A stretch of DNA of 37,928 nucleotides, from positions 1 to 37,928 of the forward strand of contig JAOPZS010000121.1 of NCBI GenBank assembly GCA_025963965.1, given 5' to 3'. Shown one piece after another: positions 1 through 36,069 of this stretch; position 1 is the first letter of the stretch; the number at the start of each line of letters is the position of its first letter. The notes below the pieces were generated by a model. It was not told the DNA's origin. It saw only the letters and a program-made list of their open reading frames with translations, and did no database searches. The DNA comes from Solirubrobacterales bacterium. Its GTDB lineage: Bacteria > Actinomycetota > Thermoleophilia > Solirubrobacterales > Solirubrobacteraceae. Both the position numbers and the translations under genes were made by a program.

Positions 1-89
1 AACAGCAGGAACAGCAGGGGGTGCACCGCGACGCCACCGGCGATCGCGACCACGACAAGCACGATTAGCAACAGCTCGATTATTCCCAT
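1..89 (-). CDS. Small hydrophobic membrane protein, N-terminal part (runs off the window)
   Basis: An ATG at 89 on the minus strand opens a frame that stays open to the window edge, giving 29 residues that begin MGIIELLLIVLVVVAIAGG. Almost every residue is hydrophobic, so this is one transmembrane helix starting at the N-terminus. Very small proteins of this look are common in actinobacteria and are usually annotated only as hydrophobic proteins. The C-terminus is missing and no function can be given. The upstream region has only a weak purine stretch (AAGCGG) as a possible ribosome site. Confidence 0.5.
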   Translation of the reverse strand, partial: MGIIELLLIVLVVVAIAGGVAVHPLLFLL

Positions 90-258
90 GCCGCTTAATT
101 ACCCGGCGCGCCGTTCGGCAACCGCGAAGGCGCTCTCAGGCGATGCGCATCAACCTCCGGCAGCGGCCTGATCGCGCTCCTCACGGAGCTTCCCGCGCCG
201 TGGTCCGCTGCGGAGCCGAGGCGGACGGTGGTGTCTCGCCCCTCGTTCGACTGATGGG

Positions 259-330
259 GGTCACGTCGCATGCGACGTGACCGGGGCGGCCGCATGCGGC
301 CGCCCCCCGGCCGGCACATGTGCCGGCCGG
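259..330. repeat. Three abutting perfect 24-bp palindromes centred on CATG
   Basis: Three perfect inverted repeats of 24 bp each lie end to end at 259-282, 283-306 and 307-330. Their left arms are GGTCACGTCGCA, GGGGCGGCCGCA and CCGGCCGGCACA, each followed by its exact reverse complement. Symmetry breaks exactly at each junction (258/283, 282/307 and 306/331 do not pair), so the units are separate. The centres are 24 bp apart and all read CATG. The array begins 26 bp past the stop of the ArsR-SRPBCC gene, in its 3' untranslated region. It could be an array of RNA hairpins, a set of protein binding sites, or a palindromic repeat element. No T-tract follows, so a simple terminator is not obvious. 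Confidence 0.9.
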
Positions 331-355
331 CAGGCACCCGGATCAGGTGTCCGTC

Positions 356-1123
356 CTACGACCCGGCCCGCGCGTACATCAGCGAGCCCGGCGTCGTCAG
401 ATCCTCGCCCGTCTCCAGCAGGGTCTTCAGACCCGACAGGATCATCGGCCAGCCGCCGTAGATCTGATCGTTCGCACCGTCGCGCAACTGGTCGTGGATC
501 ACGCGCAGGCGGCACGAGTCCTCGACCTGCTCGATCTCCCAGGTGACCCGCGAGGTACCTTCGCTTGCGACGTCCTCATCCCAGCGCGCGTGGAAGCTCT
601 GGACGAGCTTGCGCGGCGGGTCGACCTCGAGGTTCTCGCCCGAGCTGATCTCCAGGCCCGTGCCCGGGTGAACGGCCTCGTAGCCGGACCCGGGCGTCCA
701 GTCGGACTCGACTCCGACGCCGAACGTGTAGCGCCGGCGCAGCTCGGAGTCGGTGATCGCCTGCCACAGGCGCTCAGGGGTCGTCTTGATGTAGATCTCA
801 AACACCTTTTCCATCGTCTTCTCCTCGATCGTCCGCTTTAGCCCCGTGAGCGTCGCCGCCCAGGGCTCTGAGTACTGGCTGACCCACCTGTCGTGGACGA
901 GCCGGATGGGGACGGCGTTCAGGAAGTGGAGCTTCTCCCGGCCACGACGTTTCGTCGTCACGAGCCCGGCCTCCTCGAGCACCCGCAGATGCTTCATCAC
1001 GCCGAAGCGCGTCATCGGCAGGCGCTGCTCGAGCGCAGTCAGCGTCTGACCGTCCTCGCGGCGGAGCTCGTCGAGTAGGCCGCGACGGGTCGGATCAGCC
1101 AGTGCCTTGAACACCTCGTCCAC
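356..1123 (-). CDS. ArsR-family regulator fused to a C-terminal SRPBCC (AHSA1-like) domain
   Basis: Residues about 1-90 form an ArsR winged helix: the start reads DEVFKALADPTRRGLLDEL, followed by MTRFGVMKHLRVLEEAGLV as the recognition helix and KRRGREKLHFL as the wing. Residues about 105-255 form an AHSA1-type SRPBCC fold (KVFEIYIKTTPERLWQAITD, later VTWEIEQVEDSCRLRVIHDQ). Such fusions are usually autoregulated repressors whose SRPBCC domain may bind a small hydrophobic ligand. I chose the GTG at 1123 because a TTGACA/TATGGT promoter at 1160-1131 would start transcription at about 1124, giving a leaderless message. The frame also allows an ATG at 1135 and an upstream start at 1153, but those lie inside the promoter. 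It is divergent from the GST gene and probably controls it. Family call sure; start moderately sure. Confidence 0.88.
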   Translation of the reverse strand: MDEVFKALADPTRRGLLDELRREDGQTLTALEQRLPMTRFGVMKHLRVLEEAGLVTTKRRGREKLHFLNAVPIRLVHDRWVSQYSEPWAATLTGLKRTIEEKTMEKVFEIYIKTTPERLWQAITDSELRRRYTFGVGVESDWTPGSGYEAVHPGTGLEISSGENLEVDPPRKLVQSFHARWDEDVASEGTSRVTWEIEQVEDSCRLRVIHDQLRDGANDQIYGGWPMILSGLKTLLETGEDLTTPGSLMYARAGS

Positions 1124-1130
1124 GAGCCAC

Positions 1131-1160
1131 ACCATACGTGACCATATGGTCACTTGTCAA
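1131..1160 (-). promoter_or_regulatory. Promoter of the ArsR-SRPBCC gene with an operator palindrome in its spacer
   Basis: On the minus strand a perfect -35 TTGACA (1160-1155) and a -10 TATGGT (1136-1131) are 18 bp apart. The spacer holds the perfect 16-bp palindrome GTGACCATATGGTCAC (1138-1153). A repressor bound there would block RNA polymerase directly, which is the usual design for ArsR autoregulation. The palindrome is also only 29 bp upstream of the GST start at 1182, so one site could control both divergent genes. The palindrome is seen; regulator identity is inferred. Confidence 0.7.
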
Positions 1161-1181
1161 GGCGAATATCGTCGACCTTCG

Positions 1182-1778
1182 ATGCTGCTCTATGACTCCG
1201 CCGTCTCGGGCAACTGCTACAAGGTCCGGCTGCTGCTGAGCATGCAGGGCATCCCGTTCGAGCGGCGCGAGGTCGACGTGGTCGAGCGCTCCGACCGGAT
1301 GGAGCTGCTCGGGGAGCTCAACCCGGCACTTCGCGTGCCGACGCTCGTGCTCGACGACGGCGAGCCGCTGGCGGAGTCCAACGCGATCCTCTGCTATCTG
1401 GCCGAGGGGACCGAGCTGCTGCCGGCGGAGCGCCTCGCGCGGGCACGGGTCCTGCAGTGGCTGTTCTTCGAGCAGTACAGCCACGAGCCGTACATCGCCG
1501 TCGTGCGCTTCTGGGTGATGTTCTCCGCCACACCTCCCACCGCGACGGAGATCGAGGCGCGGCGCGCGGGCGGCTACGGCGCGCTCGATGCGATGGAGCG
1601 GCATCTCAGCGGGCGCACGTTCCTCGTCGGCGAGCGCTTCACGATCGCCGACATCGCCCTCTACGCCTACACGCACGTCGCCCACGAGGGGGGCTTTGAG
1701 ATGTCCGGCTACGGCGCGATCGAGCGATGGCTGCGTCGCGTCGACGGGCAGCCAGGCCACATCCCGATCACTGCCTGA
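1182..1778 (+). CDS. Glutathione S-transferase family protein
   Basis: The 198-residue protein has an N-terminal thioredoxin-fold GST domain: a beta strand and active-site loop SGNCYKVRLLLSMQG, then RVPTLVLDDGEPLAESNAILCYLAE, which carries the cis-proline (VPT) and the glutathione-binding ES motif. An all-helical C-terminal domain follows (about residues 85-195), with the typical GRTFLVGERFTIADIALYAY N-cap region. It probably conjugates or reduces small electrophiles in the cytoplasm; the substrate is unknown. An upstream start at 1107 is in frame but would overlap the divergent regulator and its promoter, and the GST fold begins at MLLYDS, so 1182 is preferred. It probably belongs to the regulon of the adjacent ArsR-SRPBCC protein. 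Confidence 0.9.
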   Translation: MLLYDSAVSGNCYKVRLLLSMQGIPFERREVDVVERSDRMELLGELNPALRVPTLVLDDGEPLAESNAILCYLAEGTELLPAERLARARVLQWLFFEQYSHEPYIAVVRFWVMFSATPPTATEIEARRAGGYGALDAMERHLSGRTFLVGERFTIADIALYAYTHVAHEGGFEMSGYGAIERWLRRVDGQPGHIPITA

Positions 1779-36045: not shown

Positions 36046-36069
36046 CGCGTCGGCGCCGGCGCCGACGCG
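36046..36069. promoter_or_regulatory. Perfect 24-bp palindrome in the divergent acyl-CoA promoter region
   Basis: CGCGTCGGCGCC (36046-36057) is followed by its exact reverse complement (36058-36069). It lies between the divergent dehydrogenase (start 35947) and enoyl-CoA hydratase (start 36132). It could be an operator for a fatty-acid or branched-chain regulator or a hairpin. All but two bases are G or C, so chance symmetry is easier here than in AT-containing sequence. Confidence 0.5.

What the first reader, a model, noticed from the sequence alone, without database searches (positions are those of the whole stretch)
259..330. Three different perfect 24-bp palindromes placed end to end
Each unit is a perfect inverted repeat of exactly 24 bp (left arms GGTCACGTCGCA, GGGGCGGCCGCA, CCGGCCGGCACA), all centred on CATG, with centres exactly 24 bp apart and no spacer. 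The arms differ in sequence, so symmetry and length are conserved while sequence is not. This is the pattern expected from selection on structure (three hairpins in an mRNA 3' end) or from a protein reading symmetric sites on a fixed 24-bp pitch. Chance is negligible. I know of no described element with this build.
Basis: seen in the sequence. Interest (0 to 1): 0.82.

Follow-up and report, generated by a model that had tools for sequence, protein, structure and literature searches.

The report
Tandem hairpin arrays with paired mutation
Three mirror-image DNA hairpins sitting end to end turn out to be one copy of a repeat found many times in related bacteria, in which the two arms of each hairpin change together over evolution, so its shape and length are inherited while most of its sequence is not.

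Summary
It is one copy of a family. Arrays of 2-6 such units (pitch mostly 24, core RCATGY) match in 19 of 24 genomes of the genus and recur in some other genera of its family (Solirubrobacterales MAGs). In 100 fetched regions plus the window, 23 of 2880 inner stem pairs are mismatched. At orthologous sites both arms change together: 49 two-sided against 3 one-sided pair changes (one genome pair per site), half of them transversions, which no G-U step can bridge. Arrays favour gene 3' ends and are rare between divergent genes; six genomes carry one in frame inside an ABC-F gene. Presence at a site is patchy. No U-tract; RAYT-type transposase in 1 of 24 genus genomes; no Rfam or phage match; nothing like it in my paper searches. 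Best reading: a lineage-specific, dispersed, non-coding hairpin-array repeat, REP/MITE-like in behaviour, whose symmetry is probably kept by arm-templated copying, with constraint on loop and length. Its function (3'-end RNA structure or DNA hairpin site) and its spreading enzyme are unresolved.

The parts
259..330 (.). array of three abutting 24-bp palindromic units (10-bp stem, CATG loop each)
259..282 (.). unit 1 (arm GGTCACGTCGCA; first position by the end consensus)
   Evidence: orientation, position consensus
283..306 (.). unit 2 (arm GGGGCGGCCGCA)
307..330 (.). unit 3 (arm CCGGCCGGCACA; last position; the identical 24-mer occurs in several same-genus genomes)
356..1135 (-). gene whose stop codon lies 25 nt before the array: HTH_20 plus AHSA1 domains; start uncertain (the listed ORF runs to 1153)
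3..89 (-). reading frame on the far side of the array (same direction, start 169 nt away, cut by the contig edge); looks like a small membrane protein by eye

Best explanation
One copy of a lineage-specific, dispersed, non-coding repeat: a cassette of 2-6 abutting hairpin units, each 12 nt plus its complement (10-bp stem, CATG loop, core YRCATGYR), most often placed soon after a stop codon. SHOWN: genus-wide and partly family-wide occurrence; a half-length of about 12 nt; near-perfect pairing; two-sided evolution of the arms at orthologous sites; shared position-specific sequence of first and last units at unrelated sites, meaning the copies are related; patchy presence at a site; in-frame residence in one gene family. 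INFERRED: (1) copies spread and vanish like small palindromic mobile or REP-like repeats, by an enzyme not identified; (2) each hairpin stays perfect mainly because the nascent strand uses one arm as template for the other during replication (quasipalindrome template switching, or cruciform repair), so a mutation in one arm is either undone or copied across; (3) loop and length are kept because the hairpin itself, as DNA or RNA, is what some factor recognises; (4) it is tolerated, and may help as a two-way 3'-end structure, downstream of genes.
For: Distribution: 19 of 24 genus genomes; 41 of 232 order genomes, those with two or more matches all in family f1. Perfection: 23 of 2880 pairs at positions 3-10 mismatched, against 12 G-U of 163 stem pairs in 8 tRNAs of genus loci. 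Paired change: 237 two-sided to 23 one-sided in 150 aligned unit pairs with at most 3 changes, not independent; 49 to 3 with one genome pair per site, 25 transversion-type and 24 transition-type. Ruler: mismatches in 0-2% of units at pairs 1-10, 5% at pair 11, 18% at pair 12, 94% (370 of 395) at pair 13 (duplicate loci included). Loop: 310 of 319 hairpins in 98 tandem runs have CATG and no run lacks it. Shared ends. Patchiness: 6 changes on the best tree, shuffled mean 5.3. Apparent decay: sister genome G004 has single arms of two units and one stem with an altered loop (by eye). Units resemble each other more at orthologous sites (1 of 500 shuffles as high) than within a genome (49 of 500), so they evolve in place. 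Literature: template switching creates and maintains hairpins (PMC8794818, abstract and start of introduction).
Against: No mobilising enzyme was found; Y1 transposase is absent from 23 of 24 genus genomes. No clear target duplication at the one clean filled/empty pair. Well-supported branches force only 2 of the 6 presence changes; most forks of that tree are open. Pure template switching does not explain why the loop stays CATG, so some selection is needed. The 3'-end bias would also fit selection for a 3'-end function. Units were accepted with at most 2 mismatches in ten, and regions were chosen by a CATG pattern, which flatters pairing and loop conservation.
Confidence: 0.5

Rival explanations
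1. RNA-level element: a tandem hairpin block at transcript 3' ends that terminates transcription or protects mRNA in both directions, with compensatory change under selection on RNA pairing.
For: Position: 61 tandem, 19 convergent and 7 divergent gaps against 155, 35 and 84 array-free gaps of 60 nt or more; 46 of 61 tandem arrays nearer the 3' end. Mostly other genera: 13 of 30 rows lie between convergent genes, several within 0-12 nt of both stops (at least two rows are duplicates). Fold strength. Array-free tandem gene ends have a few more long stems than shuffles (8 against 2 of 202).
Against: No U-tract; arrays in frame in ABC-F with frame-keeping spacing; no wobble preference; equal transitions and transversions among paired changes; 14 of 21 orthologous sites empty; convergent gene ends without arrays lack long stems (2 of 87 against 3 shuffled); no clear bias of array polarity to transcription (19 to 14).
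Confidence: 0.25
2. DNA-level site: an extruded cruciform or ssDNA hairpin with a YRCATGYR tip, bound by a dedicated chromosome-organising or repair protein.
For: The loop and its flanks are nearly invariant while the stem is free; both orientations are used; alternating pyrimidine-purine core.
Against: No candidate protein; presence at a given site is patchy and five of 24 genomes of the genus have no match.
Confidence: 0.15
3. A member of the REP/BIME families, for instance one spread by a RAYT (Y1) transposase.
For: Dispersed, extragenic, palindromic, biased to gene 3' ends. CGTC-type REPs have 8-9 bp stems, 4-5 nt loops, intragenic units and no associated transposase (PMC3733652 passages), so a missing RAYT alone does not exclude that branch.
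Against: Y1_Tnp in 1 of 24 genus genomes (G007), not in G002, G005, G014 or G022, which have more matches; no GTAG or CGTC tail in the end consensus; stem sequence not conserved.
Confidence: 0.05
4. Ordinary dimeric-repressor operators in tandem.
For: Perfect dyads of operator-like length.
Against: Arms vary freely yet stay symmetric; located mostly after genes, rarely between divergent ones; pitch varies 23-26.
Confidence: 0.04

Closest known systems
REP / BIME extragenic palindromic repeats (GTAG and CGTC superfamilies; PMC3733652, passages read)
   Same: Small palindromes, dispersed, some clustered, mostly between genes, some inside reading frames; CGTC types have similar stem and loop lengths and no transposase.
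   Different: REP families share sequence and a GTAG or CGTC tag; here the stem is largely sequence-free, units abut on a 24-bp ruler, the loop is CATG, and no such tag shows in the end consensus.
Rickettsia palindromic elements (recalled; equated with CGTC families in a PMC3733652 passage)
   Same: Palindromic repeat tolerated in frame inside a protein gene.
   Different: As recalled, conserved-sequence palindromes and not tandem ruler-length units with co-changing arms; not compared here by computation.
Mitochondrial repetitive / double hairpin elements (PMC2800124, passages read)
   Same: Multi-hairpin elements, some GC-rich, dispersed, mobility mechanism open.
   Different: In the sponge elements stems are conserved and loops vary; here it is the reverse.
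Intrinsic terminators / 3'-end inverted repeats (PMC13155455, passages read)
   Same: Stable perfect inverted repeats with 4-nt spacers just after stop codons.
   Different: No U-tract, runs of 2-6 units, near-invariant CATG, at few genes, also inside a reading frame.
Template-switch-maintained hairpins / quasipalindrome correction (PMC8794818 abstract and start of introduction; PMC7202029 search listing only)
   Same: Two-sided stem changes without wobble intermediates are what arm copying predicts.
   Different: Described as a mutational process acting on stems, not as a dispersed repeat family with fixed unit length and loop.

Membership tests
REP/BIME | dispersed extragenic palindromes | tested here: met
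REP/BIME | family-wide conserved sequence of the palindrome | tested here: not met
   stems vary; the YRCATGYR core and position-specific preferences are shared
REP/BIME | GTAG or CGTC tag at one end | tested here: not met
   end consensus CCGG|AACAGC and GGTC|YYCC, no such tag
REP/BIME (GTAG branch) | Y1 tyrosine transposase (RAYT) in the genome | tested here: not met
   1 of 24 genus genomes (not a defining feature of the CGTC branch)
MITE | target-site duplication | tested here: inconclusive
   one clean filled/empty sister pair (G022, G003) without a clear duplication; one search gave an apparently decayed copy instead
MITE | terminal inverted repeats shared with an autonomous transposon | not tested
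   the two ends differ in consensus; no parent transposon was sought beyond Y1
Intrinsic terminator | GC-rich hairpin after a stop codon | tested here: met
Intrinsic terminator | U-tract after the hairpin | tested here: not met
   for the window; end consensus of 101 arrays shows none
Intrinsic terminator | transcripts end there | not testable with these tools
   no RNA data held
Structured RNA family (Rfam) | match to a curated covariance model | tested here: not met
   nothing near a gathering score in window 1-1500
Rickettsia-type palindromic elements | in-frame residence in protein genes | tested here: met
   6 of 17 ABC-F orthologues with a readable linker; three other in-ORF calls (L307, L339, L341) were not checked

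The most novel reading that the evidence does not exclude
A class of chromosomal element whose inherited identity is shape, not sequence: a hairpin array with a 12-nt ruler and a CATG tip, in which an arm-copying process (replication template switching, possibly with a dedicated hairpin-recognising enzyme) rewrites one arm from the other, so the element evolves by whole base pairs and can spread to new sites.
Probability: 0.3. Interest if true: 0.9.

Novelty: new variant of a known kind. Interest (0 to 1): 0.76.

Why it matters
Compensatory change is the classic proof of a working RNA helix. Here is a natural system with up to about twenty copies in one genome (20 arrays fetched from G002), orthologous copies in many species, copies inside a reading frame and an apparently decaying copy, in which paired changes outnumber single ones about 16 to 1 (10 to 1 over all close unit pairs) with no sign of a wobble route. 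It makes directly testable whether stems stay perfect by selection or by arm-templated mutation, and it flags a dispersed repeat family that my literature searches did not find described (open-licence PMC papers only, top listings only).

Tried and rejected
Chance or one-off assembly error: rejected (reversed-pattern control 1 against 182 in the genus; other genomes). Over the whole order the reversed control gave 31 matches (my sum), 19 of them in one genome of another genus (G182), which I did not look at; forward matches were 289 (my sum). G020's single match is imperfect by eye and equals its control. RAYT/REP machinery: not supported. Phage origin: no similarity in 50,697 phage records, and the 23 viral contigs with the spaced GCATGC pattern hold no palindromic runs. 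Titles were shown for 80 of the 119; of the 16 titled loci with runs, 15 are Solirubrobacterales and 1 an Actinomycetes MAG, and the other 64 titled loci hold none. Concerted evolution of units within a genome: weak (49 of 500 shuffles as high). Clustering of presence on the tree at one site: none. Orientation relative to transcription: 19 to 14. The fold of the 3' ends of 12 AHSA1 orthologues showed single GC-rich hairpins in several relatives outside the genus, but stop positions were not pinned, so I do not rest on it. Site L265 gave no usable empty site. A tRNA control over all loci mixed organisms and was redone on genus loci only (8 tRNAs). Paper searches listed no description of such arrays; one search returned nothing, and searches listed only the top 20 of 121, 15 of 22 and 12 of 602. 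In PMC13155455, PMC3733652 and PMC2800124 only passages were read, in PMC8794818 the abstract and start of the introduction, in PMC6649704 the abstract; the rest are search listings only.

Full report
OBSERVATION. The three 24-bp palindromes at 259-330 are exactly as described. The block lies 25 nt after the stop codon of a minus-strand gene with HTH_20 and AHSA1 domains (356-1135) and 169 nt before the next minus-strand reading frame. As a single strand it folds into three 10-bp hairpins with CATG loops.

IT IS A FAMILY. A search of the neighbourhood in 61 genomes hit the palindromes at other places of same-genus genomes, and nine of the fetched loci held runs of 2-6 palindromes, mostly abutting. 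The pattern CATGYN{16,20}RCATGYN{16,20}RCATG then matched 19 of 24 genomes of the genus, 182 forward matches by my sum, reversed control 1. Five genomes had none and the window's own genome has one. Matches overlap (a four-unit array gives two), a few are not palindromic by eye, and G020's only match is imperfect and equals its control. Over the order it matched 41 of 232 genomes (289 forward; reversed control 31, of which 19 in one genome, G182, not examined; sums mine). The genomes with two or more matches are all in the window's family, and convincing palindromic arrays were seen in four of its genera (g1, g2, g39, g14). Some single matches elsewhere are plainly not palindromic; not every one was read. 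Public titles place the relatives among Solirubrobacterales metagenome genomes.

ANATOMY. I fetched 100 array regions from 17 genomes; some listed places were left out (for example G019:C117, G023:C53, G004:C74, G018:C45, G008:C177, G020:C116, G021:C182), as were matches the tool did not list. With the window these give 101 arrays of 2-6 units. Centre spacing is 24 in 171 of 259 cases, 25 in 43, 23 in 30, 26 in 15. Pairing falls off at the twelfth pair: in 395 units, duplicates included, mismatches are 0-2% at pairs 1-10, 5% at pair 11, 18% at pair 12 and 94% (370) at pair 13. From the dyad outward the arm reads A, C, purine, pyrimidine (C 85%, T 15%), then mostly G or C. In 98 tandem runs of perfect stems with any loop, 310 of 319 loops are CATG and no run is without CATG, though most of those loci were found through CATG. 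First and last units have their own consensus at unrelated sites, and the last unit is often followed by something like AACAGC, so the dispersed copies look related; similar ends appear in the other genera. The window copy itself lacks the AACAGC flank.

EVOLUTION. Flanking genes show that many arrays are orthologous between species, with different unit numbers and different arms, still nearly all perfect. In 150 aligned unit pairs with at most three changed base pairs, 237 changes are two-sided and 23 one-sided (comparisons overlap). Taking one genome pair for each of 19 site groups, 49 are two-sided and 3 one-sided, 25 of transversion and 24 of transition type; one of the 19 groups gave no aligned unit. 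Mismatches at pairs 3-10 are 23 of 2880; of 22 that could be oriented to transcription, 3 are G-U and 5 A-C. Units were accepted with at most two mismatches in ten, so the rate is conditional. In 8 tRNAs of genus loci 12 of 163 stem pairs are G-U. Ordinary RNA-helix evolution through G-U is therefore a poor fit; copying of one arm from the other fits, as proposed for hairpins in general by PMC8794818 (abstract and start of introduction read).

CONTEXT. Of 101 arrays 61 lie between genes in tandem (46 nearer the 3' end), 19 between convergent genes, 7 between divergent genes, 9 inside a called frame and 5 at an edge; array-free gaps of 60 nt or more are 155 tandem, 35 convergent and 84 divergent (my own simple gene finder). 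Array-free gene ends have no excess of stems of 8 or more between convergent genes (2 of 87 against 3 shuffled) and a slight one in tandem (8 of 202 against 2), so such hairpins are not the genus's standard terminator. In 6 of 17 ABC-F orthologues with a readable linker an array of 3-5 units lies in frame in that linker; its 15 spacings are all exactly 24, against 156 of 244 elsewhere, roughly 0.001 by chance by hand calculation, which says the frame is translated through the array.

TURNOVER. At one intergenic site an array is present in 7 and absent in 14 of 21 genomes examined. On a tree of the adjacent gene (20 genomes, 6 with the array; G005 left out) presence needs 6 changes, shuffled mean 5.3; the tree is weak and its well-supported branches force only 2. 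Neighbour genomes G022 and G003 give a clean filled/empty pair without clear duplication. In G013 the array fills the space between the stop codon and a -10-like GATAGACT of the next gene (read by eye). At another site G004, sister of G014, has what look like single arms of two units and one full stem whose loop is no longer CATG (by eye): I read this as decay, so the structure would not be essential there.

INTERPRETATION. Shown: a dispersed, lineage-restricted, apparently homologous family of hairpin arrays with conserved length and loop, arms changing in pairs, patchy presence at sites. Inferred: spread as a small non-autonomous element by an unidentified route; perfection kept chiefly by arm-templated mutation; loop and length kept by recognition of the hairpin. 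An RNA 3'-end role is the main rival and may coexist. The element behaves like REP or MITE repeats in distribution, but fails the tested REP features (shared sequence, GTAG/CGTC tag, RAYT), so I do not file it there.

Noticed in passing
window 60-127 and G000:C43:80722-80789: A 68-base exact match between the window's contig near its start and another contig of the same genome, perhaps an assembly overlap: the contig appears to break about 130-260 bp from the array.
   Followed up: no
L040, L041, L299, L311, L332, L335, L344 and window 259: Several arrays lie within about 260 bp of a contig end, as if hairpins break short-read assembly; copy numbers may be undercounted.
   Followed up: partly
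L273, L334, L479 (CACG), L299, L301 (TATA), L267 (CTTG), L421 (CAGG): Units at or near array edges with perfect stems but a changed loop.
   Followed up: partly
G182 (same family, genus g8): The reversed control pattern has 19 matches in this one genome while the forward pattern has none; some other spaced repeat may live there.
   Followed up: no
window 36046-36069: Another perfect 24-bp palindrome (CGCGTCGGCGCCGGCGCCGACGCG), single and without CATG.
   Followed up: no
L364 (G019 ABC-F linker): The ABC-F linker where other species carry the array holds an unrelated run of NGGAPSGAAP-type repeats in G019; the linker seems to accept repeats in general.
   Followed up: no
L429 (G000, homologous to the L315 site): At this site the window's own genome has one long hairpin without CATG (by eye).
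   Followed up: no
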